The notes below the pieces were generated by a model that was not told the DNA's origin, searched no databases, and worked only from the letters and a program-made list of their open reading frames with translations. Shown here piece after piece: positions 9,501 through 62,905 of a stretch of 64,000 nucleotides of DNA. Origin of the DNA: Henricia sp. BOLD:AAB3569 (lineage: Eukaryota; Echinodermata; Asteroidea; Spinulosida; Echinasteridae); the NCBI GenBank assembly GCA_037783545.1, contig JBBELK010000480.1, positions 1,559,001 to 1,623,000 of the forward strand. The letters are read 5' to 3'. Position numbers and translations under genes: made by a program. Every line of letters begins with the position of its first letter. Positions within the stretch are counted from its first letter, which is position 1.

Positions 9501-12500
9501 ATTCATTTGCAATGTACATGTACATGTACATCTGGTCGAGTCAACGGTGAATCTCGTAACTTTTTACGGTCTGATTTCTGATGCTTTTTTAGTTTAACAA
9601 AAAGAAGCTTAATAAAGAATGCAGTGTTAAGTTAGCTTGATCAATTTCAATAGGTTTGGCCTTAATAACATGAAAAATACCTACGTTTTTGTCACTATAT
9701 TTACAATTTTTTTTACTTCAAACTCAAATCCCGTTTTCTGTTTCAAAGGGCAGATTCCGCGAATTCCGTCCGTTTTCCGCGATCGCGGAAAATCATTGGC
9801 CCTACAGTATCTAAGGGGCGGGGTTAACTGAGCAATCTCGGAACTATGCATTCTTTAGTAATTTTGGCAGTGGTGTACTTGTCAACGCTCAGGTTGTCCT
9901 GATGCTTTACTTTTTATTTGAAATGGTGCTGTTTGCCTTATTTTTAAGCCGTCAATCATCAATATCACCGTGTGTGCTAGCGACGTTCAAAAGAGTTTTT
10001 TCATCCCATAAAAAACTTGACAAAACATGACAGAAACGGCATCGAATGACATGGTTGTATACAGCAATTTGTTCAACCTTGTTTTCCATAAAAACTAGTA
10101 TGCTTATTTGTTCCTGACATTTTTACAGCATATCTTCTGTCGATGGAAAGACACTGTGGCTGCAGCCGATGTACCAATTTTTTCCAGACATTGATCGCGC
10201 ACGCACGATGCCAAATCAAATGAAGGCGCGAACACGTGTACTATGTAGTTGAATTCTGCGTATTGTAAACACTCGCATATGAACATACGCATACGAACAT
10301 ACGCATATGAACATACGCATATGAACATACGCATATACCCATGCAGCACATGCTAAGTACACGATGTATATTCACGCACACGAACCAATGAAGGCAAACA
10401 TTAAAAACATTCAAAGGCAAACAATAACAACCAACCACTGTAAAGAGAAAAATATACATTTGAGACTAAAATTGTCTTAACTTTACTCATTTTCTCTGTT
10501 GTTCTTAAAACTTGAAGCATGCATCAAAGATATTAATTTCATTTTTCCCCTAACAGTCGAGAATTGTCAGAAATTACGATCCATTTTTCATCTGGACCAT
10601 TCGGAGGGACACCATCAACTTTAAGTTTCTTAGGAAAGAAACGATCGTCAATCACTTTGCCAAAAATGGGGCATTTACAACCAAGGTATTACCTTATTAT
10701 TAAAAAGAGAAGTTTTTTTTTTTTTTTAAATCAAACTGCTTCCAATTAGGCCAAACAAAATAAATGGTGTGTTTACGGTAACCCGACCTACCTGGAATTT
10801 TTGAGGCCAAATTGCCGACCTCAAACTTTTTATTGCCAATTTTCAAGTGGATAATTTTAAATGAGCACTATTTGCAATAATTTCCAACGAACATAATATT
10901 TTCTACACTTGTACATGAACATGTTTAACAGTGTTAATAGTGAGTTTCAAACATTGCAAAACAACAAGCAAATGCATGAACTAAAATGTAAATAAAAATG
11001 AGAAAATAAAATTATTTTCCTACCTACCTACCTTGATTTTTTTTAGGCCGTAAACGCACCATTTATTTTGTTTGGCCTTACCAAAAATGTCAAAAAACCT
11101 CACTGTCTAAAGAAATTTTTCCTTGTGTGATGGTCAAGTTGTTTTGTTCATTTTATGGTTTTATTTCTCAGAGCGGCCTTTGCACACATCTCCGCAACCT
11201 GAAATGGTTTGAAAACATCGACGCGGACACCTTCTACCCTCGCTGCTACAAGATTTGCAATGAAGAGGAAAAAGCTGCTTTTCTTGGTGAGAAGAAACAC
11301 AAATTTTTTGTTTCTGTGTGCCTGAAAAAAAGTGTAATTTTGTGTTTAGTAACTAAAACTTACTCGAGTCAGACTTGAGTCAGAGTCGAGTTCAGTCATT
11401 GACTCAAATATATACAGGCCTGCTTCAAATTAAAAAAAACAAATAATGCTATTTCACTTTGTTAAAGATAGTATACATGATTGGTAAACCATTACAAATA
11501 TTTAATCCCCCTGTGTGATTGAAGGTATGCATGAGTAAAACCAACCTGAGCAAAAACCAGCTCCGTACTTCGTCTAACTTTTGAGAAAACAGTAAAAAAA
11601 GGGTTTGCAGTCATTTCACCCCAAAACCACTTCATCCTGAACTACTTCGCCCTGAACCACGGCCTCTGCACAAAGTGGTTTTAGGGCGAAGTGTCATTTG
11701 GGCGAGGTAGTGTTTGGACGAAGTGATTTGGGGGCGAAATGGCACTTAGGCAAAATGGTTTTGGGGCGAATTGAATTTTAGTCTCACAAGAAGAAAAATA
11801 ATTGAAAAATAATTTCTCAAAAACTATAGCATTTCAGACAAAACAATTTCAGGGGAAGTTTTCTGCCATCATCATGTTTATATTAATTGTGTAAAGTGTA
11901 AATCTGTGAACATTTCTGATTCTTCGAGATACTAATCATATGTACTGCCTTTAAAGAAACTTGTTCAGATTTTTCTAACCTAACAATCATATAAAATACC
12001 TTCCCAAAATACTGTCCATGGGAAGAAAACAGGAAATTTGCAGTCTCCAGTTTGGATGTGGAAGCAAACATTTTTGATGATATCCTTTTAAATGGAAATA
12101 TACGGATTGAAAGCGCGAAATTTCAGAATGGTAACGAGAAAACAATGACATATGATGTTGTATCAAAATCTCAACACCCATGGCGTCAAAAATGTGATCT
12201 GGTCACGCTCCTTAAACTCTTTCAGTGCCAGCGTTTTTTCAACATTTAACTCTTAAATGCCAGACTTTTCGCGTTTTTGGTAATTCTTTGAAATTCTGTA
12301 AAAAACAAATTCAAAAATAAGTTGTATATAAGTTGTATATTGTTCTTTTATAGATTCTAGAAACAATGGTGTTTTTTTTAATGAGTGATAAATACCAATG
12401 TTTTTCACTATCTGAGTGCATTTTACTATGGGCGCCGCCATCTTGGCTGCTCAGAACTGCTCAGATTTTGCGCCCTCTCGACGAACTCCGACATCGTACC

Positions 12501-15500
12501 TCGGTGATATTGCATATTATCTCGATGATATTGCATATTATGATAGATCAATGCGTCCTCTAGCGATATTCGTACGTGTACGACGGTCGGAGTTTTTGAA
12601 GTACTATTCGTACATGTACGACATTGGCACTTTCAGAGTACATCTGATAGATCGTACTTGTACGGCCTTGGCACTGAAAGAGTTAAAATGTCTGGGATAA
12701 TTGTCACACGAGCTCTCTCTTTAAAATAAATTTTTAAAAAGAGAAATATTTAAAAGATGAAGTTAAATGCCCTTGTCTCTTTCCTGCAAACGATAGATGA
12801 CTACAGGCTGACCGCAGCATTCAGTATCCTAAAATGGGTCGTGCAGCGTCACAACGGGGAACTAGACATCCCAATGGACGATAACGAAGACACGCAAGAT
12901 GAAGACGACGGCAAGACGGAAATTGAAGACGACGCGAGCACTGCATCACCAAGAACACAACCCAAACCCGCTGCCCCAAAGACCAAGAGAAGAACTAACC
13001 CTATCCTGGCCGTGTCGCTGGTTAAAACTGCCTTGGGTGTCGTCGAGAACTACCTACGCGACATGAATCACGATTTCCTGGACGAGATGGATGTTCAAGA
13101 CGTGATGACTGAGAAACAGTGGGAGGAATTTACAAAGCAGTATTGCCAACTTATCTTGTAAGACACTAGACAATAAGTGTATTGTTCTAGTACTGTGCAA
13201 AGAAATTGGTAGAATACCAGTAGCCGATTTCACGAAACTTTACGCAATTGCACAAGTCCACTTACGCCATAAGTTATTGCGCAAGTAATGGCGTAAAGTG
13301 GACTTGCGCAATTGCGTAAAGTTTCGTGAAATCGGCTGCAGGGACCAATTTTGTGAAGCTTTTTAGCAGAAAAATTTGCTTAATCCAAAATTTGTTTACT
13401 TTATAAAAATGGGTTAGTAATTAAAATTTTATGTCAACTTGTGTTCTTAGCAAGAATAGCAGAACACCAGTCAATGAATTGTAATACACGTAAGATTTTG
13501 ACTGCTAACCCATTTTTATAAAGCAAACATTTTGGATTAAAGGCCTTTTTTTGCAAGATAAAACTTTTTACAGATTCGTGAAATAAGAGTGTTAACAAGG
13601 AAGAATGTTGGTAAACTAGTCTGAAGACATTTTAGCTACTTAGATGCATCAGTACTTCAGAAAACCTTGAATATCTATATGGATTTTGTGTACAAGTGAA
13701 TGGTAAAAAAGTCTTGTGCACGGGACCTTTTTAGAAAACTACCTTCGGTTGTCAATTTCCAGCATGAAATACCATTTTGGACGGAAATAAATTCATGTGG
13801 TGTTTGTTACCATTGCTATCAACACTTTGAGTAAGGTTTTTCTTGTCAACTCATGAAAAACAAAATTGGGTCATTGCAAATGATACAATGGGCCTTTAAG
13901 GAATTTTTTAGCTAAACAGCTTTATGAAATTGGCCCCTGGACAATTAGGCTGGATCCGAATTAGTGGCTTTGGCTGTGGCTGTTGCTATGCTGTTTCTAA
14001 GGACTGTCATTGTCCGCCCATAGCAACAGCATAGCAACAGCTATAGCCAAAGCCACTAATTCGGATTCAGCCTGAGTCTTTTGCATGTTTCACATGTATA
14101 GCGTCTGCTGTACTAACGTACTTCCTTTCACATGCACACTTAGTATCCACTTGACCAGACTAATTTTTTGTTGCTATGTGGTGCACGCACCAAGTATGAA
14201 GTACAGAATCAATACTGTGTTCACTGTAGGAGAGAATGGCATAGAGCAACCAGACTGTCGGTTGGTAGTCATTGGTAGCATTATATCAGGGGACATTATA
14301 ATGTGAGTTTAATGTAGTAATTATGTCTTTTTCCAGTGAGGGCGGTATTATCGCCGAATCCAAGAATCACTGTGCAATGTGTGAGAGCATGCTGAACAGA
14401 TTACGCGCCGTTTTACCTCAACTGGACATGGATGGGCTGCGGAATATTTGGATCGTTAAACCGGGAGCCAAATCCAGAGGCAGGGGTATGTTTGTACTTT
14501 TTCAAATAATCTTTTCTTTTTTTTTGCAAAATAATATAAAGTAGATTAACAGTTTCTATTTTTGTTTCTACACATCACTGTCTGCACACTTCAACTTGGG
14601 AATAATTATTTAACGACAATTAAGGGGACACCAAGGCATTCTTCAACTCTTACGATTACATTTAAAATTTTAAAATTGACGATTACTTAAAATCATTCAA
14701 TCTTTAAATAAAAGTTCAGAAGATTGCATTCGAAGATTGCACCAGTTTTATTTTTGAATAAAACTTCAGCAGATCGCACTAGTTTTTGAATCATTCTTGT
14801 CATGTTTTAGGTAATATCAACAGGTAAATGTGGTGTTTGATTCACGAGGCCATATACTATTTATTTTTTTTAAAGTCAACTCCAGAAGTATCATGACATA
14901 ATGCACCTATAAATTGTTTCCCCCCCCCTCCCCCGGGGCTACCCCACCTAAGAGGTGGGGATTGTCACTTTTTGCGTGACAAAATCCCCACCCCTGGGGC
15001 AACATTTAGGTGACAAAAATCCTCACCCGAGGGTGCAAAACATGAGCAAAAATTCACAGAAAATGGGCCAAATGCCCCACCCTGGGGCATGAAAAATGTG
15101 ACCAAACCCCCACCGGCACCTAGGGGGTGGGGCAGTGCAGGGGTGGGGGGGGGGGGAGGGGGGGAGGGTCGGGGAAACAATTGATAGGTGCATAAGTGGG
15201 ACACTGTCCCATTGTCGTGGAATGATCGACCCCTGTACAAAGTCTGGCACCCTTCCTATCAGCAGCATACATTTCACACAACCGATTCAGGGGACATGAC
15301 ATCAATGCCTACAGATTGCCACATGCATCAGGATCTGAGTGTACATTTTTGTGACACGCATCAGCTGCGCCGTATTTCAAACAAACATTGAGCAACACGC
15401 TACATTTTCCATGATGTGCGCATGCGTACCTGATGGCATTTAATACGCAGTGGTATTTTTTCTACAAAGATGGCCGTTTGTGAGAGTGGTCTATTGCAGT

Positions 15501-18500
15501 TCTATCTCCTTTTTCCACATTTACTAGGAATCATCTGTATGAACAAACTGGACGATATTCTGAAGCTCGTCGGCAACCCGATGATCGCCAAGGAGGGTAA
15601 ATGGGTGGTGCAGAAGTACATAGAGCGCCCTCTATTGATCTACAACACCAAGTTCGATATTCGGCAGTGGTTTTTGGTGACCGACTGGAACCCGTTGACC
15701 ATTTGGTGGTACCAGGATTGTTATTTAAGGTTCTGTACTCAGCCGTTTTCGCTGGACAATCTGGAATCGTAAGTACTGTGAGAAAACAATTTTCAGTTTT
15801 GACAAATTCCAGTGCTGTTACCTTATAGGCAAAACACATGATTAGTAAACCTTACAAATAGTTTTATCTCCCTGTCTGATTGAAGATATGCATGATTAAA
15901 ACCAACCTGAGTATAAAAAGTCAGCTCCTTACTTCATCTAACTTTTGAGAAAACAGTCACTTCGCCCCAAAACCACTTCGCCCTGAACCACGGCCCGTGC
16001 ACAAAGTGGTTTTGGGGGAAACCTGAGGGAGTATATACCACTGTGCCTCATAGCTCAGTTGGTAGACGGCTGCCTGGTGTGTCGGAGGTCTTGGGGAAAA
16101 CTGAGGGAGTATACCACTGTGCCTCATAGCTCAGCAGGTAGAGCATCTGCCCGGTGTGTCAGAGGTCTTGGGGAAAACTGAGGGAGTATACCACTGTGCC
16201 TCATAGCTCAGTTGGTAGACGGCTGCCTGGTGTGTCGGAGGTCTTGGGGAAAACCTGAGGGAGTATACCACTGAGCCTCATAGCTCAGCAGGTAGAGCAT
16301 CTGCCCGGTGTGTCAGAGGTCTTGGGGAAAACTGAGGGAGTATACCACTGTGCCTCATAGCTCAGCAGGTAGAGCATCTGCCCGGTGTGTCAGAGGTCTT
16401 GGGGAAAACTGAGGGAGTATACCACTGTGCCTCATAGCTCAGCTGGTAGAGCATCTGCCCGGTGTGTCAGAGGTCTTGGGGAAAACTGAGGGAGTATACC
16501 ACTGTGCCTCATAGCTCAGCAGGTAGAGCATCTGCCCGGTGTGTCAGAGGTCTTGGGGAAAACTGAGGGAGTATACCACTGTGCCTCATAGCTCAGCTGG
16601 TAGACGGCTGCCTGGTGTGTCGGAGGTCTTGGGGAAAACTGAGGGAGTATACCACTGTGCCTCATAGCTCAGTTGGTAGACGGCTGCCTGGTGTGTCGGA
16701 GGTCTTGGGGAAAACCTGAGGGAGTATACCACTGAGCCTCATAGCTCAGCAGGTAGAGCATCTGCCCGGTGTGTCAGAGGTCTTGGGGAAAACTGAGGGA
16801 GTATACCACTGTGCCTCATAGCTCAGCAGGTAGAGCATCTGCCCGGTGTGTCAGAGGTCTTGGGGAAAACTGAGGGAGTATACCACTGTGCCTCATAGCT
16901 CAGCAGGTAGAGCATCTGCCCGGTGTGTCAGAGGTCTTAGGGGAAACCTGAGGGAGTATACCACTGTGCCTCATAGCTCAGCAGGTAGAGCATCTGCCCG
17001 GTGTGTCAGAGGTCTTGGGGAAAACCTGAGGGAGTATACCACTGTGCCTCATAGCTCAGCTGGTAGAGCATCTGCCCGGTGTGTCAGAGGTCTTGGGGAA
17101 AACCTTAGGGAGTATACCACTGTGCCTTATAGCTCAGCTGGTAGAACATCTGCCCGGTGTGTCAGAGGTCTTGGGGAAACCTGAGGGAGTATATCACTGT
17201 GCCTCATAGCTCAGCTGATAGAGCATCGGCCTGGTGTGTCCGAGGTCTTGAGGAAAACCAGAGGGAGTATTCCACTGTGCCTCATAGCTTAGCTGGTAGA
17301 GCATCTGCCCATTGATTCAGAGGTCTCAAGTTCGAATCCTGATACAGATATTATTTCTCTCTCATCCCATATTTGGTCATTTGTTTCCCCCAACAGTGCC
17401 ATCCACCTATCCAACGTCTCCATTCAGAAGAACTTTGAAAACTCCACAACTCGCTCGGCCATGCTTCCTGAAGATAATATGTGGACAAGTAAAGAGTTCC
17501 AACACTACTTGAAGAGTCGAGGGTGCGGTAATGTGTGGCAAGATAGTATATACCCAGGGATGAAGAAATCCGTCATCGCGGCGTTGCAGTGTACGCAGGA
17601 TATTGTGGAGATGAGGAAGGTGGGTTAGAATTCAGACTGGAGAGGAGACTAGTTGTATATTGCTGCTTTGTAATAGACCGATCCAGTAAGCTCCGCCCAT
17701 TTAGAAATTGACTAGCAACATGCCACACACGTGAGGCACGTGTGCAGTAGAGTCGCGTGGCCGCGTCAGCGTCCTCGCCCTGGTCAGCGCGTATTGAAAC
17801 ACGCATACGCACACAGAAACTGCACGCTCGATGTGCACTTAAGTATCCGGTCATGTGCGTGCACGTACAACACGCCTGCATAACGCGTAACGCGCGCGAT
17901 CGAACAAAAACATCTCGACACACATCTAGAACATGTAGAACGTAGTGAATGCACAACATAGCAAAACGACAAGCTAATTTTGGTGAGTTTTTCCCGTTTA
18001 CACAAAAACACATTTATGAAGTAGGTTTGGATAGTCTTATACAATCCGTTTTAAACCGGCTAGGGTCCTCCGCGCTGATAAAAATTATGTTTATTATATT
18101 TTTGCGTCACTCGTGCCGTAGCTCTGTGCACAAAATTTTGAGGACTCGGGTAACCAAAATGGAGATCCACTTTTTGGTTACCTCAACCTGAGGCTGTGAT
18201 TGTTCAATTCCATAATGGGCGGAGCTTACTGGATCGGTCTATTTTACCCCGTTTCAGTAATTAAACTGGTATATAGTGGCCACCCTTAGGACCGTAAAAA
18301 AAACCAAACTGGTTGCAAACTGGTTGCATTAGCATTATACACATGGCATTTGGGACTAAAGACGGGTGGCCACTATAAACAGGTGGCCTCTTTATCTAGT
18401 GGCCACTATAGAAAATTTGACTGTATTAAGCTCTTGTGGACCACGCACATGTGCGTTTTTGGACTTGAAGTCAATTCGGTATACGGTCGTGTTTTGTCCG

Positions 18501-21500
18501 TCTATAATGCCGTTTTACCGCGCACGATCGATTTTTATGTGCAGTATATATTTTGGTTTTGACTTGTATACCGACTTGAGAAACATGATTGCGCGACAAT
18601 ATTCACGATTCAAAGCGCGTTGACGCTGTTGCCATACAAGAACCAATCACGATAATCCACGCACCGCACTCCACAGTGTGGTAGCGTCCATTTATTCACA
18701 CGAACTGCATTTAACTTTTAGTGAAATGTAGTAGGTCTTCTTTGAGTCCCAAGCATTTATACTTCATACATAGTGTACAACAAAATATACATGTACAGTG
18801 TACTGTGAGCAGTACACCGTACGCCTAGTAAAAGAGTTGAATTGAACCCCGAAACCCATTTTCCTCCTTTTTCCCTCCAGAATTCCTTTGAGCTGTACGG
18901 AGCAGACTTCATGGTAACCGAAGATTTCCGACCATGGCTGATCGAGATCAACTCTTCACCTGCCATGGGCGCCACCACGGAGATCACCGAGCAGCTATGC
19001 CATGACGTCATCGAAGACACTATGAAAGTGGTCTTAGACAGGCGGCATGATCGGAACTGTGATACGGGAAAGTTTGAACTGGCATTCAAGCAGGTAAGAG
19101 GCCCTGGTTCGAATCCTGTCCGTGTCAATTTGTTATTTATTTAATTGGGTTTTTGAAACTTTAATTTGAAAATAAATTAAACACTTTTTATTCCAAAGTG
19201 TTGGAATCGCTCAAGCCTATCGTCTATCAACTGAATAAGTTGCCTTTGTTGCTAAATTTAGATTTTTCAAGTAATATTTAATACTTGACCTTTGGTTTAG
19301 CACCAAATTCAGTGCTAACTATTGTTTTGAAATTAGAATTGCCCAAGCCTACTGTGGTCATTAACTGAACTGTTAAATTGAAATTGGTTTTGATCATAAA
19401 CATCCTTAAATACAGTATACATGATTGGTAAAATGTTACAAATAGTTTTATCCCCCAGTATGATTGAAGATATGCATGATAAAAACCATCCTGAGCAAAA
19501 ACCAGCTCCGTACTTCGTCTAACTTTTGAGAAAACAGTCAAAAAAGGGTTTACAGTCATTTCGGCCCTGAACCACTAGACCGGCAGCCCAGAGGGTTTTG
19601 GTTAAACGAACGAGGTACCAACAACCGAGGGCAGGAACATTTAGGAAGTGACCTAGTATTTGCAGATCTGGGCGTCTGCCGGGGTCCCTCTGCTGCGTTT
19701 GACCCCTGGGGACCCCCAAAGGGGGCCAAAAATTGCGCTGGATCAAACATTCGAGGTACCACATGAAACTAAGTTGAGATGAAAGAGCACATCACACAGA
19801 GTACGGAATGGCCCTTGCCAGACGAATTTTCTGCTGCAAAAGTCCCGCCAGACGCCCGCCAAAATCTCATTCCATATAATAAATGCAAGATACAACGGCC
19901 GTCGACAAACGAGTCCATTTGTTTTGAACGGGTAGCTTTGACATACGGCTGTTCTGTGTTCTGGGAGCGCTGTAAACAGAGATACATGTGCGTCTATTGC
20001 GGCGCGGGCTAACAAGGCGCGTCCCGAATCGAAATATACACACAGGTCTTTAAATTAATCTAAATTAATCTTTGCACGTCAAAATTGGTGTGCGACGCCT
20101 GACATTTGACGCGTAATGTATGCGCCAGTGTTGAGCTTTTTGGTGACCAGGAGCCAATTTCATGGCGCTGTTTAGCACAAAATATTGTATTTGCTTTATT
20201 TTGCTAAAATGTCCCGCCAGCCAAAATCGTATGTGATGTTTTTTTTTACTATTTTGCTAATGTTTCTAAAAACCCAATTTGCCATATAGGCTAATAATTG
20301 GCTGGTAACTCATTTTACAAAAGTAAATAAATTCTGTGCTTGGCACATTAATGTGTAGATCTGTGATTTTCAATGACTCATTTCCCTCCATAGGCCTATG
20401 GCTTTATTTTTCAAAGAGACGCGCTTTAGGCTCAGTGTGAATCCACCCAATATAAACCCCGCCGATTTACGATTTACCTTTGTGATTTACCGGCCAAAAA
20501 CCGGATTATTACCAAACCATCGGATGATACAGAAACATCTAACAAACATTTCTGATTTGTCCCGGTTCATGTACGGTCAGACCAGCCCGAAGTTCCAGCC
20601 CAAACTTTTCCGGTCATGTGGGCCGATAGGCCGATTAATCGCAAAAGTGTGCGCCGGGCTTTAAAAGCGGGTAAATTTGACGCGCGTCACTGCACCTCGA
20701 CAAAATGCTACACGCAGAGAATTTGTATGAGCCGACTGACTGCAAATCCCAGAATAACAGGACATTCTTGTGCGTCGCTTCACTCCAAATTCCTTGCCGT
20801 ATTTTCTTCAAGCAGCGCGCGTCAAATTTGCATGCAGAACGCGTAAATAAAGTTCAGTGTGCATGAAAAAAAGTTTAGTGTGCATATCCAATTCATCTAC
20901 ATGTACATGACTTTTGTAATTCATTCCATGCCGCACTCCAAATTCCTTCCATCCCGCATTTTCGTCAAACAACGCGCGTCAAATTTGCATACAGAACACG
21001 CGAAAATAATTAGTGTGCATGCATCTCCAACTCATCTAATTTTATAGGCATGTTCCCGGGGCATGTTCAGACAATTATCATCAATTATCATCAATAATGA
21101 GGGTGGATATTCACACACAGCCTTTTTGTGTGTAAATTCGACGCGCGTCGCTTTCACAGAAAGCGGTTTGGAGGGAATTTGGAGTGAAAGGATGCTCTGA
21201 TAACAACATAAACAACTTGATTTTGTGTATTACAATATTCTGTTAAATTTGTTTCGCGCGAAAAGGATCAATGTTCAAGAATCCGCGCTCATCGTCGATG
21301 AAACGTTTGTTGTGTTTGCTATTTGGATAGGCCCTATAGCAGTGGTCAGTTTCGCCGATGCAACTTTTGACGGTGGAAAATGATACAGTTTAGTCACTTT
21401 AATTTACACTTAATCATTTACACGTAGCCTACATTGAGTCATCCTCTTGCAACAGTGCCCCTTTAACGCACTCCCTAACTCCTGCGTACAGTGGCCCTGT

Positions 21501-25124: not shown

Positions 25125-25460
25125 TATCACAAGTCTAAGAACTCGGGTTCAAATCTTGGTCACAGCAACAAATTATCTCACCACGAAAATCACAGATGTG
25201 GGTTTTTCGTTTCTATCTGTTCTAATATTTCCTGAGTATAGACCGTATCCAATAGCCGCCATTTCGTGGGGCACCTTTTGTTACTTAAACCGTATCACAA
25301 GTCTAAGAACTCGGGTTCAAATCTTGGTCACAGCAACAAATTATCTCACCACGAAAATCACAGATGTGGGTTTTTCGTTTCTATCTGTTCTAATATTTCC
25401 TGAGTATAGACCGTATCAAATATCCGCCATTTCGTGGGGCACCTTTTGTTACTTAAACCG
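25125..25460. repeat. 168-bp tandem duplication with B-box motif
   Basis: TATCACAAGTCTAAGAACTC starts at 25125 and again at 25293. Each copy has GGGTTCAAATC, a Pol III B-box-like word, and GCCATTTCGTGGGGCACC. An inverted piece (CCACGAAATGGCGGCTATTT) follows at 25530-25560. Confidence 0.85.
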
Positions 25461-25969
25461 TTCAACAATGGAATCACAATATGTGCAACCATGCATGTAG
25501 CATGTCCTCAAAGCACAAAGAAACTGCCCCACGAAATGGCGGCTATTTGATACGGTCTATAATGACCAAGTGCTCAAAGTATTTCACGTTTTACGTGCAT
25601 CTAAACCTCCTTAATATTTGAATTTTGTACATAAACATGTACCAAAAGCGTACTTAAATTCTTTTTTTAAAGTGCATGGTTTCTTTTTTACCTTTAACAT
25701 TTTTAACATTTTATAGTAAATAGTAGAGTGCCTTCTTTAAATCCAGGTAGATATTATGGGGAAAAGAATGTGATATTTCACCATTTCTGTGGAATTTCAT
25801 ATGACCCAGTGAGGCTAGTTTTAAAGAGGGAAATATTTTGTATGTATGATAACTTAGATGTTTATAGTCAGTACAAAGCTGCATTAGAGAAACTATTTAA
25901 TTTAATAATAATCATTTGTTGATACTAATTTTTTTAAAGACTAATTTCCTCTTTCCTATTTTGCATGTA

Positions 25970-28928: not shown

Positions 28929-29535
28929 TAATATTTTTAAAATGATCATGTTTCAAAGTTGGAGTTCAAGTTTGAAAGGTTTAGAGAAATCCTTTTCTGA
29001 GATTTGTGTTTGGTAAAATTTGAGAATATGAAGTGAAGTTATTCTGAATCTGAAAACGTTGAAAGTACTGTATTTATAATTTTACAATATACATCCAAGA
29101 TTTTGTGATTTTATGCAAAATACTATTATTTTGTCCTAAATCATGTTGATCAAATTTTGTTTCATTATGGTTTTTTTTAATTGGATTTTTAAAAAATTGT
29201 AAGGAAGCACATTTTTTGGATATATAGTTTGGAAGATTGTAAATGCTAAAAAAAGCGAGTGTACACACGCATTTTTCTAAAAACCACCTTTATTTCTTAC
29301 TTTCTTCCAGAAAAGTACCATTTTAGACAACAATTTCGAGTTTAGTTTTGTTTCTTGTCATCTCTGAATAAAAATTTTAGGTCATTAAAAATGATATTTA
29401 TAACAGGCCTTTATTTGCTTGAGCAATAAAGTACAGCAAACAAATTGTTTAAATATTTTCACTTTTAGCCTTCCGACATCTTTATCAAGAGAACTGTAAA
29501 AGAAATAACATGGTCTTCATCGGCATTTGACCGAA
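28929..29535. other. AT-rich spacer, no feature seen
   Basis: AT-rich unique-looking sequence between the orphan frame and the second half-tRNA array. No repeat ends or splice-flanked frames found. Confidence 0.5.
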
Positions 29536-29544
29536 CCTACAACC

Positions 29545-30175
29545 TCTCACTCACCAGGCAGATGCTCTAGCTGTGAGACACAGTGGTATACTCCCTCGGG
29601 TTTCCCCAAGACCACTGAGACACTGGGCAGATGCTCTACCAGCTGAGCTATGAGGCACAGTGGTATACTCCCTCGGGTTTCCCCAAGACCTCTGACACAC
29701 CGGGTAAATGCTCTACCAGCCGAGCTATGAGGCACAGTGGTATACTTCCTCAGGTTTTCTGCCAAGACCTCTGGCACACCGGGCAGATGCTCTACCAGCT
29801 GAGCTATGAGGCACATGGTATATACTACCTCAGGTTGCCCCCAAGACCTCTGACTCACCGGGGGATGCTCTACCAGCTGAGCTATGAGGCACAGTGGTAT
29901 ACTCCCTCAGGTTTTCCCAAAGACCTCTGACACACCAGGCAGATGCTCTACCAGCTGAGCTATGAGGCACAGTGGTGTATTCCCTCAGTTTCCCCCAAGA
30001 CCTCTGACACACCGGGCAGATGCTCTACCAGCTGAGCTATGAAACACAGCACTTGGTATACTCGCTCAGGTTTTCCTGAGTGAGTATTTTCCCTAAGACC
30101 TCTGACACACCAGGCAGATGCTCTACCAGCTGAGCTATGATCGAGGCACAGTTGTGTATTCCCTCAGGTTTTCCA
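29545..30175 (-). repeat. Tandem half-tRNA array 2 (about 8 units)
   Basis: The same unit as at 16019-17348, on the minus strand: complement of TACCAGCTGAGCTATGAGGC near 29646, 29725, 29803, 29880, 29960, 30038 and 30137, plus a degenerate unit near 29570. More diverged than the other two arrays, with small insertions between units. A B-box-like word (GGTTCGAATCTCG on the minus strand) lies apart, near 30246-30260. Confidence 0.85.
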
Positions 30176-30275
30176 TAAGAAGCCAATTATGTATGCACAT
30201 TACAACTGAGCAAAGTATGTATTTTTTTCCAAATGAAGAAACATTTTCGAGATTCGAACCAGAGACCCATGGTAT

Positions 30276-31609: not shown

Positions 31610-34600
31610 GTAGGAATTTGGGTTTTGACATCAGTCGACTGTTTTGTCCAACTCGCACACGTGATTTGCAAACGCAAACATGCTAGGCCTAGACTTATTT
31701 ATAATACTTTTTTTACAAACCTTACCCGAGTCAAATTACCGCCGATGCATTTTTAACATTACCATGAAGAATTCAATTGTTCACTTACTTCCGGATGGAT
31801 GATTTTAATGTTGATTTTTGCGGATTTTGTAGCCATGTTTTTCTTTCACACGTTTTCCTACTGTTACTGTTAGCATCCTAACTGACATGACTGATGCCCC
31901 AGCGTAACCCAGGGCCCAATCCCACCCGCATTTATACGTCGTGGGTGAGAAGGTGCACTTGCGATCGCATGTTCACGGAAGGCCTGCATCAGACAATGTA
32001 TAAAGCAACGGGCAGACGGAGGAAAGGCTGTGAGTGTGAAAAGGAAATAAAAACATGGCTACGAAAATCCAGCTTTTTTTTTGCGAGGTTGAATTTCGAT
32101 TTTTTAGTTTTAGCTTAGCTCATTTTTGTAATCATACAAATTCCTAATATTTTGAATATGACATTATACAATTGGATTGAAATTGGTGGTTTTTGTTTTA
32201 CCAGAGTGGTGTAGTTTGTGCATTGAAGAAAGTTCCTTTGCGTAAACTTGATGATGGAATCCCTAACACTGCACTCAGGTAAATTACAAAAATTTAATTT
32301 ATCAGTGAGGACTCAAACTCCCGAAATGGAGAAATTCTCCCCTTCTGGCAAATTATCCTTATCGGGAGAAGTTTTTTTCCCTCGATGCAGAGATTTTCAC
32401 CCGATCGGGAGAATGATATTCTTCGGAACCATTTGCGCACGTATCCGCTCATTTGCGCATGCAAAACCGAAGTGGGCGAAGCGAAATAATTTTTGCAAAA
32501 AAACAATGAAAATTTATGTAAATTTGGGTTTTCATCGACAATTTGGCACCAAAGACGATTGTTTCTGGTGTAATTTGTCGTCTGTGCCTAAGGACGGCAT
32601 GGTTTTCATGACGATTACTGTAGATTTTATGCGTGGATTTCTTCTATGGTCGCATGCTTGTATATTGTAAAGCGTCTGCATCACTGGGGTCACATGACAA
32701 GGCAAATTTTAAGAATTCTCCATATGAATTTATGGTATAAATTACGTTTACTGAGTGGCCGCCACTGAGACGCCCTATGTTAAGTCTATGGAACAGGGCA
32801 AGGGAATTATTGAATGTTTTTCACTCCTAAAATTCACACGTTTTGGTGGTTATATTAAGCCAGTAATAAACTAATTTTCCTGTCTATATCATATTTTTTT
32901 CACAGAGAAATTAAAGCCTTACAAGAAATAGAAGAAAACCCTTTTGTAAGTTTTATTTTTGCTTGATTTACAAATTTTACTGTTTTTAAATTTTTTTTTT
33001 ATCTACTACTTTTATTATTTTTTTTCAAAAAGGTAGATACGTTTTTTTTATGGAAATTGTTCAATGTTTGTCACTCCTAAATTGAACCCTGTAAAATATA
33101 TTAACACTTTTTTGTGGTTTTTACGTCGTATTATAAAGAGAATAAGTGGCAACCAGTGAACACAATGCATAGTTCCGATTTTGCCCAATCAACCCGCCCT
33201 CTTGGATATTGTTGCTATGCCTCACACGCTATCGTCAAATTGTCCACACACACTGCACAAACCAATTGAAGCACAGATTCATTGGAGAAAACTCAAAGGT
33301 ATTCATGTTTCAGGGTCAACAGTTATCGTAGAACATACTGAGTAAAGGGCCAGTAATACAGGGATGTCATATCATGAAATATGTGCTTTCTTACCTTTGA
33401 ACAGGGAATCGCCCGGCCTTGAAACAACAAATTCACCCGGATCACCAAATACATCACTGTACAAACTGTATGCGCAGAAAATCGCGTAATGTTGTTTGTG
33501 AGCAAATGCACTTTGACCTACGTTGGCGCTGTCTGCTAGCTCTTTTGTGATTGGTCGGCAGGTTCGGCCTGATTGATAGGTCGGAACTATGTATTATTTC
33601 CTGAAACATTTTTTGATGGAGCTAAAATTCAAATGTTTTCCCCCCAACAGGTGGTGAAGCTAAGGGAAGTATTTCCCCACAGCACAGGCTTCGTCTTAGT
33701 CTTTGAGTTCATGCTGTCGGACCTGTCTGAAGTCATCAGGAACTCAGAGCGACCTCTAACGGAGGCTCAAGTCAAGAGTTATATGGTGATGCTCCTTAAA
33801 GGAATAGCTTACTGCCATGAAAACTCCATCATACACAGGGTAAGAACTGTTCATTGAAAATTTTAATCAGTTGCCTATCCATACAACACTAAGAGAAAAT
33901 GTTAGTCCTTGGGGGGAAAAACTGAGGGAGTGTACCACTGTGCCTCATATAGCTCAGCTGGTAGAGCATCTGCCTGGTGTGTCGGAGGTCTTGGGGAAAA
34001 CCTGAGGGAATATACCACTGTGCCTCATAGCTCAGCTGGTAGAGCATCTGCCTGGTGAGTCGGAGGTCTTGGGGAAACCTGACGGAGTATACCACTGTGC
34101 CTCATAGCTCAGCTGGTAGAGCATCTGCCTGGTGTGTCGGAGGTCTTGGGGAAAACCTGAGGGAGTATACCACTGTGCCTCATAGCTCAGCTGGTAGAGC
34201 ATCTGCCCGGTGTGTCAGAGGTCTTGGGGAAACCTGAGGGAGTATACCACTGTGCCTCATAGCTCAGCTGGTAGAGCATCTGCCCGGTGTGTCAGAGGTC
34301 TTGGGGAAACCTGAGGGAGTATACCACTGTGCCTCATAGCTCAGCTGGTAGAGCATCTGCCCGGTATGTCGGAGGTCTTGGGGAAACCTGAGGGAGTATA
34401 CCACTGTGCCTCATAGCTCAGCTGGTAGAGCATCTGCCCGGTGTGTCAGAGGTCTTGGGGAAACCTGAGGGAGTATACCACTGTGCCTCGGCTCAGCTGG
34501 TAGAGCATCTGCCCGGTGTGTCAGAGGTCTTTGAGGAAACCTGAGGGAGTATACCACTGTGCCTCATAGCTCAGCTGGTAGAGCATCTGCCCAGTGTGTC

Positions 34601-37600
34601 AGAGGTCTTGGGGAAACCTGAGGGAGTATACCACTGTGCCTCATAGCTCAGCTGGTAGAGCATCTGCCCGGTGTGTCAGAGGTCTTTGAGGAAACCTGAC
34701 GGAGTATACCACTGTGCCTCATAGCTCAGCTGGTAGAGCATCTGCCTGGTGAGTCGGAGGTCTTGGGGAAACCTGAGGGAGTATACCACTGTGCCTCATA
34801 GCTCAGCTGGTAGAGCATCTGCCTGGTGTGTCAGAGGTCTCGGGGAAAACCTGGGGGAATATACCACTGTGCCTCATAGCTCAGCTTGTAGAGCATCTGC
34901 CAGGTGTGTCAGAGGTCTTTGGGAAAATCTGAGGGAGTATACCATTGTCTCATAGCTCAACTGGTAGAGCATCTGCCTGGTGTGTCAGAGGTCTTTGGGG
35001 AAACCTAAGGGAGTATACCACTGTGCCTCAGCTCAGCTGGTAGAGCATCTGCCTGGTGTGTCAGAGGTCTTAGGGAAACCTGAGGGAGTATACCACTGTG
35101 CCTCATAGCTCAGCTGGTAGAACACCTGTCTGGTGTGTCAGAGGTCTCTGGTTCACATCCTGATAAAGACCGTACCATTCTTCTGCTATGCCTATGGTTA
35201 TCAGAATAGTTTCTAAAGTATCCAACGGTTAATCATCTGGCAAATGATACAGTGTGCCTTTAATCAGCAAGCTTGACGCCTCCAGTCGTGTGTGACGTAA
35301 ATTGTCCCATTTATTGCAGGATTTAAAGCCAGCCAATCTCCTGATCAGTGAAACAGGACATCTTAAGATTGCCGATTTTGGTTTAGCCAGGGTCTTCAGT
35401 GATGAGGAAGGCAGGCAGTACAGTCATCAAGTTGCCACAAGGTACCAGACCTTGCTTCTATAATTGGTTCAAGTGCTGTTCCTGGTTTTTTATTTGCACA
35501 TACAATATTTAAAATCTAGTACATTTGTTTTGGAATTTTGGAATTCATTTTCATTTGTATATTAAACTGTAGCATCAAACAAGGCTAACTGCACCAGCCT
35601 CTGTAAGAGCCACTGAGGCAAGGTGCGCCACTCTGCCTGAAGTACCTCCCTGAGCTCCTGCACTTCTAGGGCTGTTTGTGTTTTCTCAGAGCCCTCAATT
35701 GCAGGATTCTCCCAGAAACACAAAATGTCACATTTCATTGCTGCGGTATTCACTTTGTTGAATTATGCAGGGCACGGCTATTTTCTCGTGGACAAAATCA
35801 GTGAAGCAGAATAGTCTTGAAAGCGATTCCAAAGTGATTGGCTGATCAGTGCCTTGTTATCCACAAGTTCACTGTATTCAACAAACTTCTGTTTTGATCA
35901 AGAATCAATATTTTAACCATATATTTACTTTGTTTGTAGGTGGTACCGGGCACCGGAACTTTTATATGGAGCAAGGAAGTACGACGAGGGAGTTGATCTT
36001 TGGTAAGTAAAAGATTTCTAGAAGCGTCTTAGGAAGGGTCACTCTTGCGACGTTGGTACGTGAATTAGGATGCATTTAACTTGTCTTAACTTTTTTGAAA
36101 TTGATCCGAGGTCTCAGTGGCTAGTTGATAATTTGTATACTAACTGGCGAGACCTGTTACTTGATTTAAATACATGACCAGGGACCAATTTAAAAAAGCA
36201 CCAAGATGCATCTTGGGAAGAGTCACTCTTATCTTGGAACGTTGCTATGGGAATGACGACGCACTGAACTCGTCTTAACTTTTGAGATATCGATCCCAGG
36301 TTGTAAATTTGAATCACACTCGCGTCCATGGTGCGTGTTCCCACCCAGGAGTATATGGGTACCTGCAAGGGTTGCGCAGCCCCATGAGTGCTGGTGTCAG
36401 GCTGCCAGCGCTGCATACTGCCCAGGGAGTTGTGCCCAATGACCAGGGTAATAATGTTGCCTCTCTCCACCCAGGAGTAAATGGGTACCTGCAAGGGTTG
36501 CAGCCCCTGAGTGCTTGTGTCAGGCTGCTGGGGCTGCATACTCCCCAGGGAGTTGTGCCAAATGATTAGGGTAATAATGTTGCCTCTCTCCACCCAGGAG
36601 TAAATGGGTACCTGCAAGGGTTGCAGCCCCTGAGTGCTTGTGTCAGGCTGCTGGAGCTGCATACTCCCCAGGGAGTTGTGCCCAATGATTAGGGTAATAA
36701 TGTTGCCTCTCTCCACCCTGGAGTAAATGGGTACCTGCAAGGGTTGTAGCCCCTGGGTGCTTGTGTCAGGCTGTCAGGGCTGCATACTCCCCAGGGAGTT
36801 GTGCCCAATGACCAGGGTAATAATGTTGCCTCTCTCCACCCAGGAGTAAATGGGTACCTGCAAGGGTTGCAGCCCCTGAGTGCTTGTGTGTCAGGCTGCC
36901 AGGGCTGCATACTCCCCAGGGAGTTGTGCCCAATGACCAGGGTAATAATGTTGCCTCTCTCCACCCAGGAGTAAATGGGTACCTGCAAGGGTTGTAGCCC
37001 CTGAGTGCTTGTGTCAGGCTGCCAGCGCTGCATACTCCCCAGGGAGTTGTGCCCAATGACCAGAGTAATAATGTTGCCTCTCTCCACCCAGGAGTAAATG
37101 GGTACCTGCAAGGGTTGCAGCCCCTGAGTGCTTGTGTCAGGCTGCCAGCGCTGCATACTCCCCAGGGAGTTGTGCCCAATGACCAGGGTAATAATGTTGC
37201 CTCTCTCCACCCAGGAGTAAATGGGTACCTGCAAGGGTTGAGCAGCCCCTGAGTGCTTGTGTCAGGGTGCCAGGGCTGCATACTCCCCAGGGAGTTGTGC
37301 CCAATGACCAGGGTAATAATGTTGCCTCTCTCCACCCAGGAGTAAATGGGTACCTGCAAGGGTTGTAGCCCCTGGGTGCTTGTGTCAGGCTGTCAGGGCT
37401 GCATACTCCCCAGGGAGTTGTGCCCAATGACCAGGGTAATAATGTTGCCTCTCTCCACCCAGGAGTAAATGGGTACCTGCAAGGGTTGCAGCCCCTGAGT
37501 GCTTGTGTCAGGCTGCCAGGGCTGCATACTCCCCAGGGAGTTGTGCCCAATGACCAGGGTAATAATGTTGCCTCTCTCCACCCAGGAGTAAATGGGTACC

Positions 37601-40600
37601 TGCAAGGGTTGTAGCCCCTGGGTGCTTGTGTCAGGCTGTCAGGGCTGCATACTCCCCAGGAAGTTGTGCCCAATGACCAGGGTAATAATGTTGCCTCTCT
37701 CCACCCAGGAGTAAATGGGTACCTGCAAGGGTTGCAGCCCCCGAGTGCTTGTGTCAGGCTGCCAGGGCTGCATACTCCCCAGGGAGTTGTGCCCAATGAC
37801 CAGAGTAATAATGTTGCCTCTCTCCACCCAGGAGTAAATGGGTACCTGCAAGGGTTGCAGCCCCTGAGTGCTTGTGTCAGGCTGCTGGGGCTGCATACTC
37901 CCCAGGGAGTTGTGCCCAATGACCAGGGTAATAATGTTGCCTCTCTCCACCCAGGAGTAAATGGGTACCTGCAAGGGTTGCAGCCCCCGAGTGCTTGTGT
38001 CAGGCTGCCAGGGCTGCATACTCCCCAGGGAGTTGTGCCCAATGACCAGAGTAATAATGTTGCCTCTCTCCACCCAGGAGTAAATGGGTACCTGCAAGGG
38101 TTGCAGCCCCTGAGTGCTTGTGTCAGGCTGCTGGGGCTGCATACTCCCCAGGGAGTTGTGCCCAATGACCAGGGTAATAATGTTGCCTCTCTCCACCCAG
38201 GAGTAAATGGGTACCTGCAAGGGTTGCAGCCCCTGAGTGCTTGTGTCAGGCTGCTGGAGCTGCATACTCCCCAGGGAGTTGTGCCCAATGCTGACCAGAG
38301 GTAATAATATTGTATTTTTTGTGAATTCTACAGGGCTATTGGCTGTATCTTTGGTGAACTCTTAAATAACTCCCCACTGTTCCCTGGCGATAATGACATT
38401 GAACAACTCTGCTGCGTACTTCGTGTTCTTGGAACACCGACAGAGCAAACATGGCCTGTAAGTACATGTACATTTGTCTTTCCACGGTAAAGGGGTCATT
38501 TTGGCAACACAGACCATATTTTCGAAGAAATACCATGTCTGGTCTCAAAATAAAAGACATAAGTTTTAGTTGTTCTGAAGAGATAACTTAGGCCCAAAAA
38601 GGGTTACAAATAGTGTGACAACATTGCTTTTCAAAAAACCCTGTGTATAAATTTCCAATATACGCTCGTAACCGGGACGGCCTAAAATGTAACATAAGTG
38701 TCCGTCCCGGTTACGAGCGTATATTGGAAATTTATTTCTTTTATTTTGAGACCAGACAAAGGTATTTCCTCGAAAATATGGTCCGTGTTGCCAAAATGCC
38801 CCTTTTTCCATCCTTTGGAAGGGATGTAAAGCCGTTGGTCCAGTGTGTTGTGTAAAGCACTTAAAAGATCCCAGAGCATTAATTCGTAAAGAGAAGGGGA
38901 TTCCATACCTGCCAACTTTGCTGAGTAAAAAAATCGGACTGTAATGAAACTTGCAACGGTCGAGTTGGTACAACGGTCGAGTTGGTAAAACGGTCAAGTT
39001 GACCTAGTACTGCACCCGTTTTCATGTACACAACACATGCGGCGCGGGCGGGGAGTCAGGTAAAGTCGACCGTTTACAAACTCGACTCAAATACCACTTC
39101 GCCTAGCCCAGGTTGGACATCGTTGTCTTCACTGCATCACGACCATCCGCTATGTAGTATGCGGTAATAATAAGGAGTCCAACCTGGGCTACACTTCGCC
39201 CAAGGGGCATCACGCGTGGATTAGTGGTGCGCGATCCGATTAATCATTCTTGCAGCACTGTTCCGATTTTCAACACTTTTAACACTTAAAAATCGGAACA
39301 AATCCGATTAAATCGGACTAGTTGGCAGGTATGGGATTCTCCCCGGTGTTCCTGGCTCGGCAGCCGAAGGCGCCACCCGCCTATGTATCTCGATGTTTAG
39401 GCAGTTTCTAGGTACTTGTAAAGCGCATTGAGATGTCGACAGACATGGAATGCGCTATATAAGAACTTGCTATTATTATTATTATTACCGTGGAAAGACC
39501 CACTTATTTAAATTTATCCACAATTCTTGTTTTGTCATAAAAATGTACCATCTTGGGAATCTCTCAAATAAACATCTTCTGTTATTAATGTTACAGGGAA
39601 TGGAGGAGTTACCAGACTATAACAAAATCACATTCCCAGAGAATCCACCAATACCATTTGAACAGGTGGTACCAGACGCATCGCCAGAGGTAAACTTGCC
39701 ACAGTCTCTCCACATGTTAATTGATATTGATGAAAATCGTTAATAGGAAGCTAGTCCTTGGGACTTTGCAGATTACCTTGTTATAACAGGAACCTTGTAT
39801 TATCAGGAATGAAAACAATGATGAGCAAAGGATTGGGACCTGATATTGTCCTTGTTATAAGCAGAATGTTGTATTAAAGGAGCGTAACCAGATATTTAAA
39901 AAAAACGGATTTCTTTCTAACCTAACAATCATATAAAATACCTCCCCAAAATACTATCTACAATGTACCATGGGTAGAAAACATGAAATTTGCAATCCTT
40001 AATTTCGATGTGGTGGTAAAAAGGTTGGTGTAATCAATGCACTGCTTTATGGATCCGAATAAATTAGTTTACTAAACTTCGGTGGATTTTAGATGATATC
40101 GCTAAAAATATACGGATTTAGGGCGCGAATATTCAGAATGGTGATGAAAAAAATATGACACATGATATGGTATCAAATTCCCAAAACCCTTGGAGAAATT
40201 GTGGGGGTAAAAAATGTGATCTGGTCACGCTCTCTTACAGGCCTCGAAATCCATTTTCAAAAGAGCACAGCAATTTTCTCTTAGTAAAGGGCACCTGAAT
40301 GAGGAAATGGAAAATTAGTGATAGAACTTTTTAAGGGCAACACAGCAATTTGCTGTGGTGCCGTGGGTTATTTCAAGGCCTGCTTTTATTATTGAGGTTA
40401 AACTTTAACACCATTAAATTGTAGCTTTGTTGTCCACTAAAATAAATAACCGTAGTATCATATTTTAATGGATTTGTTCTAGCATATGGGTAATTTCCAA
40501 AATTAGGGGTCCAAAAGTGTGACATGCTTTTTAAGAAATGTTGTCTTTTTTTTCAGGCACTGGACTTGTTGAAGAAGTTCCTTGTCTACCCTTCCAAGGA

Positions 40601-62089: not shown

Positions 62090-62905
62090 TGAAAAGGCCT
62101 CTATTGTGTCGTAATTTGCCCATACTTTTCCAAATCACGGTTTTCAATGCACGACTGTTGATCTATGCGTTTATATATCTGTGGATAACCGGCCTGGAGC
62201 ATCCTCGTTCAACGAAAATATTCTACATTATAGTGCATTTACATTACTTTCTTAAATAAAATATTTGCTTTAAAAATATATGTTTGTATAATATAAATAT
62301 TAAGACTGCTTAGAACTTGCTCTATTGTGAGAAAAGAAACCATTATTTGTGTTATTTAATTATCGTGATTCGTGATGTTGGAGTCTGGCCTTAAACTTGT
62401 ACAAGTCAATTTAACGCTTAGTCAAGCCTGGTTCATAGGCGAACACGAGCACGAAATTTGACAACGAATTTGTCCGACGCGCCGCGAATTCCGAGAAAGC
62501 TGAAATAGTTTTAAAGGCCATTCAGATTGTATCATTTGCAATGACCCAATTTTGTTTTTCATGAGTTGACAATAAAAACCTTACTCAAAGTGTTGATAAC
62601 AATGGTAACAAACACCACATGAATGTATTTCCGTCAAAAATGGTATTTCATGTTGGAAATTGACAAACGAAGGTGGTAAGAAGTAACTATAAATAAATAG
62701 TAGTAAACTTGCGGGTACAACCATGTGAAAAAATCTCTTTTTTGGAGTAGTGTTGGCTCTGAAAAGAGCCGGTTTGGTCTCGACGTTTCGAACAGTATAC
62801 CCTGCTCGTTTTCACATGGTTGTACCCGCAAGTTTACTACTATTTATTTATAGTTACTTCTTACTTTCAACACCATGCAAAGCTTCAAACACCACAAACG
62901 AAGGT
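62090..62905. other. Spacer with inverted dispersed repeat
   Basis: 62515-62670 is an inverted copy of the 13541-13925 repeat. 62690-62735 and 62806-62860 form a hairpin (AAACTTGCGGGTACAACCAT with its complement). No gene. Confidence 0.55.

What the first reader, a model, noticed from the sequence alone, without database searches (positions are those of the whole stretch)
16019..17348. Tandem arrays of half-tRNA units with A boxes but no B boxes
Seventeen 77-bp units each carry the 5' half of a tRNA-like sequence (TAGCTCAGCTGGTAGAGCA, D stem GCTC/GAGC, then an anticodon-arm-like TCTG...CAGA) followed by a constant linker instead of a T arm. Only the last unit has a B box. This is not a normal tRNA cluster and not a dispersed SINE; it is a satellite grown from the left half of a tRNA-like SINE. 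Pol III needs both boxes, so only the terminal unit could be competent, and earlier A boxes could act as decoys or alternative starts.
Basis: partly seen in the sequence, partly recalled or inferred. Interest (0 to 1): 0.75.

Follow-up and report, generated by a model that had tools for sequence, protein, structure and literature searches.

The report
Satellite arrays of half tRNA-like units
A 77-letter half-tRNA-like segment of a dispersed tRNA-derived repeat has been multiplied in tandem at many places in an animal genome, leaving at most one complete promoter at the far end of an array; this resembles a known way in which mobile repeats turn into satellites.

Summary
A1 (16019-17348) has 17 units of 76-78 bp; only the last has a B box. 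Two more arrays lie in the window, A2 (minus, 8 units) and A3 (16 units), each ending in its only T-arm-like unit. Genome-wide the head pattern occurs at least 30,423 times, reversed control 0. In 40 fetched loci a B box (2 or fewer mismatches) follows 29 of 48 last units and 0 of 344 internal units.

The reading needs correction. The 'linker' is not a substitute T arm: it is a leader that also precedes the first A box (3 of 3 window arrays; 30 of 42 sampled arrays). It ends a longer conserved 5' part of a dispersed parent repeat. The parent occurs as copies with a full tRNA-like cloverleaf (12 of 20 T-arm-selected loci pass Rfam's tRNA cut-off). The arrays are best read as multiplication of its leader plus A-box half, like SINE-derived satellites of reptiles (PMC10702118). 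Upstream A boxes as Pol III starts are unlikely (PMC11724288, yeast). Whether the parent is a true SINE stays open; the species is unknown.

The parts
16004..16043 (+). A1 5' end: leader (end of the conserved 5' part S, model 115-154) before the first A box
   Evidence: profile match; alignment to leader consensus
16044..17277 (+). A1: 16 internal units of 76-78 bp (half tRNA-like head with A box, then the leader of the next unit); no B box
17278..17345 (+). A1 terminal unit: A box (17285), B box AGTTCGAATCC (17329-17339), 32-bp gap between the boxes
   Evidence: (Rfam tRNA 26.0 bits, cut-off 29)
17326..17383 (+). A1 3' part T of the parent repeat: T arm and tail
   Evidence: profile match T 1-61
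29503..30217 (-). A2: conserved 5' part S (30217-30149, model 75-154), 8 units, degenerate terminal unit, T part (29530-29503)
33859..33940 (+). A3 5' part S of the parent repeat (model 75-154)
33942..35098 (+). A3: 15 internal units, no B box
35099..35221 (+). A3 terminal unit with degenerate B box GGTTCACATCC (35150-35160) and T part (model 1-71)
15434..15772 (+). Open frame whose 3' part matches the tubulin-tyrosine-ligase family; the next TTL match lies in 17293-17628, so A1 lies in the intron between them
   Evidence: Pfam TTL 108.5 and 36.1 bits
33651..33839 (+). Protein kinase exon; the next starts at 35320, so A3 lies in the intron between them (CDK20-like by recalled sequence)
   Evidence: Pfam Pkinase 43.9 and 38.3 bits

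Best explanation
A dispersed tRNA-derived repeat has the layout: 5' part S (about 75-150 bp seen, ending in the leader), tRNA-like head with A box, T arm with B box, then a tail with a T run (part T). Between two tandem copies of it, the stretch from the end of the anticodon arm (GGTCT) to the leader was lost, giving a 77-bp unit of leader plus A-box half (inferred). That unit was multiplied in tandem, most likely by unequal exchange or replication slippage (inferred), so that the array lies between S and a last, complete head with T. Internal units should bind TFIIIC poorly because they lack the B box (inferred from yeast). At most the terminal unit, with its 32-bp A-to-B gap and, in many sampled copies, a T run about 17 nt after the B box, is a possible Pol III gene. 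In the window even the terminal units are eroded, so the arrays are most likely inert satellites, two of them in introns.
For: Window: the order S, units, T in A2 and A3, and leader, units, T in A1. Genome: 30,423 head matches, 3,884 junction matches and 3,184 T-arm matches, reversed controls 0. B box in 29 of 48 last and 0 of 344 internal units; random windows 0.74%. Leader before the first head in 36 of 49 chains and 30 of 42 arrays at the 99th percentile of a control that leaves the arrays out. Of 42 arrays of two or more units in 40 loci, T follows 19 and a long S precedes 18, both in 8. T-arm-selected loci: 16 of 20 have one head next to the T arm, 1 two, 1 four, 2 none; 12 of 20 reach Rfam's tRNA cut-off at the selected site. 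In the 40 array loci 14 tRNA matches reach the cut-off: 7 at terminal or single units, 7 outside the arrays, 0 at internal units. T4+ within 60 nt of the B box in 21 of 30 terminal units, 17 of these at 13-18 nt; random 60-mers 39%. Complete heads every 227 bp (L042) and about 237 bp (L059) show the undeleted arrangement. Within arrays: A1 units 3 and 4 equal 9 and 10, with a 282-base exact run at offset 461; edge units more diverged than inner ones, P 0.00045 for three arrays (one A2 unit weighs heavily) and 0.002 for A1 and A3 alone.
Against: Direct alignment does not show the leader to be related to the T arm (757 of 2000 shuffles as good); its origin rests on part S. 19 of 48 last units lack a B box at 2 or fewer mismatches, some because the array is cut off inside the leader. 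A first leader test, whose random control still contained the arrays, passed only 4 of 49 chains. Only 8 of 42 arrays have both S and T by profile, and the profiles were built from 12 hand-picked flanks each. 9 of 30 terminal units with a B box have no T run within 60 nt. The unit tree is poorly resolved (4 of 29 inner branches well supported), so separate growth of each array is not excluded. No expression data.
Confidence: 0.8

Rival explanations
1. The array is a Pol III device: many A boxes share the single distal B box, giving alternative starts or TFIIIC-bound decoy sites.
For: Perfect A-box consensus in 34 of 41 window units. A1's terminal unit keeps near-consensus boxes at normal spacing.
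Against: The A box is no better conserved than other 12-column stretches (21 of 77 as low). The next A box is about 109 bp from the B box, outside the 31-93 bp seen in yeast; A-only DNA almost abolishes TFIIIC binding; pseudo-A boxes not thought functional (PMC11724288, passages). A2's terminal unit has lost a good A box and its B box is interrupted.
Confidence: 0.05
2. The unit RNA itself is selected, for example as a source of structured small RNA or a T-arm-less tRNA.
For: Rfam's tRNA model aligns four internal units end to end with the T arm left out, at 18-20 bits. Most stem pairs are kept (33 to 38 of 38 units per pair); changes include T-G wobbles in 9 units at one pair and one double change.
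Against: Fold energies of three internal units are like shuffles (z -0.47, -0.15, -0.51); scores are below the 29-bit cut-off; young tandem copies keep most pairs anyway.
Confidence: 0.04
3. Each array grew independently in place from a separate complete insertion by recurrent duplication at the same breakpoint.
For: Each array has its own variants and units cluster weakly by array (12 changes, shuffled mean 16.5, 3 of 200 as low).
Against: The same type of junction (GGTCT-TGGGG and close variants) in all three window arrays and at least 3,884 matches in the genome. A1-A3 identity 0.903 is close to within-array identity 0.921 and 0.906.
Confidence: 0.15

Closest known systems
SINE-derived satellites (sSat1-3) of scaled reptiles, PMC10702118 (abstract, background, results and discussion read)
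   Same: Tandem units of about 70-290 nt cut from part of a tRNA-derived repeat; a longer terminal unit continues to the repeat's end; alternating subvariants; some units carry extra sequence of unknown origin.
   Different: Snake units hold the box-B part, these hold the box-A part. Two of three window arrays lie in introns, while the reptile ones favour subtelomeres. The parent here is not shown to be a SINE.
PcH-Sat of the limpet Patella caerulea, from Nin-SINE, PMC11121367 (abstract and passages)
   Same: Satellite derived from a tRNA SINE and lacking a working Pol III promoter.
   Different: 179-bp unit with a 3' segment of the SINE and neither box; pericentromeric; about 10% of the genome.
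Hy/Pol III repeat of Hydromantes salamanders (from the background of PMC10702118, and a table in PMC9659126, passage)
   Same: Tandem repeat linked to a tRNA-related region, with no box B.
   Different: About 200-nt unit; its tRNA origin is called questionable in PMC10702118.
Satellite I / OAX of Xenopus (from the background of PMC10702118)
   Same: Tandem repeat with a tRNA-derived segment.
   Different: Long unit; relation to a SINE unconfirmed according to that paper.

Membership tests
SINE-derived satellite | Head-to-tail array of four or more units shorter than the parent repeat | tested here: met
   17, 8 and 16 units of 73-98 bp, mostly 76-78; median 8, maximum 26 units in 42 sampled arrays of two or more; parent monomer about 227-237 bp in two loci
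SINE-derived satellite | Longer terminal unit running on into the parent's end | tested here: met
   3 of 3 window arrays; 19 of 42 sampled arrays have part T by profile
SINE-derived satellite | Parent repeat is a true SINE | tested here: inconclusive
   tRNA-like head and boxes present, but see the SINE rows
SINE-derived satellite | Satellite-like placement (subtelomeric or pericentromeric) | not tested
   contigs unplaced; two of three window arrays are in introns
tRNA-derived SINE | Internal Pol III promoter: A and B boxes at normal spacing | tested here: met
   12 of 20 T-arm-selected loci pass Rfam's tRNA cut-off at the selected site; A1 terminal gap 32 bp
tRNA-derived SINE | Target-site duplications | tested here: inconclusive
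   with ends set by S and T, longest shared flank words 4, 4 and 6 for the window arrays (as long in 99%, 99% and 29% of random pairs); of 9 single copies one (L050) shares 9 bases (0.8% of random pairs), the others 4-6. One search used earlier, less exact ends. Ends vary between copies
tRNA-derived SINE | 5' end at or near the Pol III start | tested here: not met
   conserved part S runs 75 bp or more upstream of the tRNA-like head in many copies
tRNA-derived SINE | 3' tail of A or simple repeats | tested here: not met
   no shared simple-repeat tail in 49 array ends or 20 T-arm-selected loci, read by eye; a LINE-related 3' end could not be tested
tRNA gene cluster | Each unit folds as a tRNA | tested here: not met
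   0 ARAGORN genes in the window; no window unit reaches 29 bits; in 40 loci 0 of the 14 matches at the cut-off fall on internal array units

The most novel reading that the evidence does not exclude
The parent is not a SINE but a tRNA-carrying repeat that moves as DNA: conserved sequence runs 75-150 bp upstream of the tRNA-like gene and past its Pol III-type T run, convincing target-site duplications are lacking, and inverted copies stand head to head through part S. The half-tRNA array would then be copied and dispersed whole as cargo, making it a mobile minisatellite with one tRNA-like gene at its end.
Probability: 0.2. Interest if true: 0.6.

Novelty: new variant of a known kind. Interest (0 to 1): 0.42.

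Why it matters
The reptile paper says it is uncertain whether such satellites are restricted to squamates. The species here is unknown; a 741-Mb genome would be small for a squamate (recalled, not tested), so this is probably another animal group. Single parents, long monomers and short-unit arrays stand side by side, and the promoter is cut in half at the unit boundary. That lets the step from dispersed repeat to satellite be traced, and shows how a repeat can multiply while silencing all but one promoter.

Tried and rejected
Linker as a decayed T arm: attractive by eye, but 757 of 2000 shuffles align as well, and the leader before the first unit plus part S explain it better. RNA structure selection: not supported by fold z-scores. 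Special conservation of the A box: not seen. Target-site duplications: none in the window; one 9-base candidate in L050; an 11-base word near L052's ends was seen by eye only. Acceptor-stem covariation between subfamilies: suggestive, but scored in only 14 of 69 items by a strict pattern, so not used. Leader test: its control contained the arrays, so it was redone. Exact-pattern scans of IMG/VR and of the prokaryote genome collection: 0 matches. Two text searches for stretches of the unit and eight topic searches, of which I saw listings, showed no description of this unit; most subscription papers, supplements and Repbase were not searched. Species not identified.

Rows dropped: 10 of the 50 distinct places in the list (itself only the first 100 of 30,423 matches) were not fetched, all at the end of the list. 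A2 unit 1 and the three terminal units were left out of the unit profile. S and T models used 12 hand-picked flanks each, so matches there are partly by construction. The 20 T-arm loci are the first 20 of 3,184, sorted by mismatches; L051/L058 and L057/L060 look like copies of each other and L049/L061 share one flank.

Full report
WHAT IS THERE. The array reported at 16019-17348 is real: 17 head-to-tail units of 76-78 bp. Two sister arrays lie in the same window, A2 on the minus strand (8 units; 29503-30217 with its flanking parts) and A3 (16 units; 33859-35221). The A-box pattern occurs 36 times at three or fewer mismatches where 100 shuffles give none. A1 lies in an intron of a tubulin-tyrosine-ligase-family gene, A3 in an intron of a protein kinase gene; A2 lies upstream of what looks, from recalled sequence, like the first coding exon of that kinase.

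B BOX ONLY AT THE END. In A1 and A3 the only B-box match with two or fewer mismatches is in the last unit; A2's last unit has an interrupted one. None of the 38 internal units of the window matches. No unit reaches Rfam's tRNA cut-off; the best is A1's terminal unit, 26.0 against 29 bits.

THE LINKER IS A LEADER. All three first units are preceded by the linker. So each array is leader, half tRNA, leader, half tRNA and so on, and the last half tRNA runs on into T arm and tail. The first matches of the three arrays start at nearly the same unit position (span 6 of 77, P 0.02). In the sampled genome loci a leader precedes the first head in 36 of 49 chains (30 of 42 arrays) at the 99th percentile of a control that excludes the arrays; with a control that included them only 4 of 49 passed. 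Direct alignment of the leader to the T arms is no better than chance.

GENOME. The window lies in a 740.7-Mb unnamed assembly of 2,104 contigs. The 27-base head pattern with three or fewer mismatches occurs 15,358 + 15,065 times, reversed-pattern control 0; the unit junction 1,851 + 2,033 times; a T-arm pattern 1,602 + 1,582 times. These are lower bounds by the tool's own note. I fetched 40 of the 50 distinct places in the printed part of the head list and the first 20 of the T-arm list. In the 40 loci, 29 of 48 last units and 0 of 344 internal units are followed by a B box with two or fewer mismatches; random windows give 0.74%. The 19 failures include arrays cut off inside the leader and units with a degenerate T arm. 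Arrays of two or more units: 42, median 8, maximum 26 units. The head list favours arrays; the T-arm list favours a single-copy subfamily (that pattern hits only 4 places in the 40 array loci).

PARENT REPEAT. Flanks of the arrays are shared between loci. Upstream lies a conserved part S ending in the leader, downstream part T: T arm, short stretch, T run and tail. By profile a long S precedes 23 of 49 chains and T follows 24, both 12 (the profiles were built from 12 of these flanks each). In the window, S precedes A2 and A3 (model 75-154), a shorter piece precedes A1, and T follows all three. T-arm-selected loci mostly have one head next to the T arm: 16 of 20, against 1 with two, 1 with four and 2 with none. 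Three pairs among them look related by duplication (L051/L058, L057/L060, and one flank of L049/L061), so the 20 are not all independent. Twelve of 20 pass Rfam's tRNA cut-off at the selected place, best 45.7 bits there; 48.6 at a second place in L064. Of 33 loci given to ARAGORN, several hold a tRNA-Thr-like or undefined tRNA. In the 40 array loci 14 matches reach the cut-off, 7 at terminal or single units, 7 elsewhere outside the arrays, none at an internal unit. A T run of four or more follows the B box within 60 nt in 21 of 30 terminal units, 17 of them at 13-18 nt; random 60-mers have one in 39%, so the fixed distance is the telling part. In L042 and L059 complete heads repeat every 227 and about 237 bp: the undeleted long monomer.

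HOW IT WORKS. Shown: order of parts, terminal B box, dispersal, single parents, long monomers. Inferred: the 77-bp unit is the long monomer less about 150 bp, joined at GGTCT/TTCT-like words, and unit number later changed by unequal exchange. Supporting the second step: units 3 and 4 of A1 equal units 9 and 10, with a 282-base exact run at offset 461, and edge units are more diverged than inner ones (P 0.00045 for three arrays; 0.002 for A1 and A3 alone). Units of different arrays intermix on the tree (12 label changes, least possible 2; shuffled mean 16.5, 3 of 200 as low), which fits arrays dispersed as arrays but is weakly resolved.

PROMOTER LOGIC. From PMC11724288 (passages; yeast): TFIIIC binding depends mostly on the B box; A-only DNA almost abolishes binding; A-to-B gaps are 31-93 bp with 32 the commonest; pseudo-A boxes are not thought relevant. 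A1's terminal gap is 32 bp, the next about 109 bp. So only the terminal unit is a candidate, and in the window A3's B box has two mismatches and A2's terminal unit lacks a good A box and has an interrupted B box. The A box is not specially conserved and RNA folding is ordinary.

COMPARISON. The anatomy matches SINE-derived satellites of squamates: units shorter than the parent and a longer terminal unit reaching the parent's end (PMC10702118). Those authors state that restriction to squamates is uncertain. A limpet satellite from Nin-SINE is a second precedent (PMC11121367). Differences: the unit here is the A-box half with leader, two of three window arrays sit in introns, and the parent is not shown to be a SINE: conserved sequence reaches 75-150 bp upstream of the tRNA-like head and beyond the T run, target-site duplications are absent in the window and doubtful in 9 single copies (one candidate), and inverted S or T parts stand just upstream of 7 of 49 chains. 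I therefore call it a satellite of a tRNA-derived dispersed repeat, working like a SINE-derived satellite, with family membership open.

Noticed in passing
36341-38312: A separate 123-bp tandem array of about 16 copies (95% matches), G+C-rich, read through by long open frames on both strands.
   Followed up: no
15836-16017; 11475-11686; 19419-19540; 1984-2103: A dispersed repeat with CACTTCGCCC motifs directly abuts the 5' end of A1 and recurs in part elsewhere in the window.
   Followed up: no
53967-54026: Near-perfect 60-base inverted repeat scoring as a microRNA precursor on both strands, below the family cut-off; probably a small foldback repeat.
   Followed up: no
62730-62775, minus: Histone 3' stem-loop just above the Rfam cut-off (35 against 34 bits); no histone frame was recognised by eye among the frames of 110 aa or more.
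   Followed up: no
59022-60750, minus: Three overlapping frames of a non-LTR-looking reverse transcriptase; the one scanned matches Pfam RVT_1 at 48.6 bits.
   Followed up: no
25125-25461: A 168-bp unit repeated twice at 98% with a B-box-like GGTTCAAATCT in each copy.
   Followed up: no
30250-30260, minus: A lone B-box-like GGTTCGAATCT preceded by GGGTCTCT, about 35 bp upstream of A2's 5' part.
   Followed up: partly
L035 2158-2766 and 4197-4873; L014 1922-2152; L030 2135-2312: Copies of the parent repeat, or parts of it, joined in opposite orientation through part S, forming inverted repeats.
   Followed up: partly
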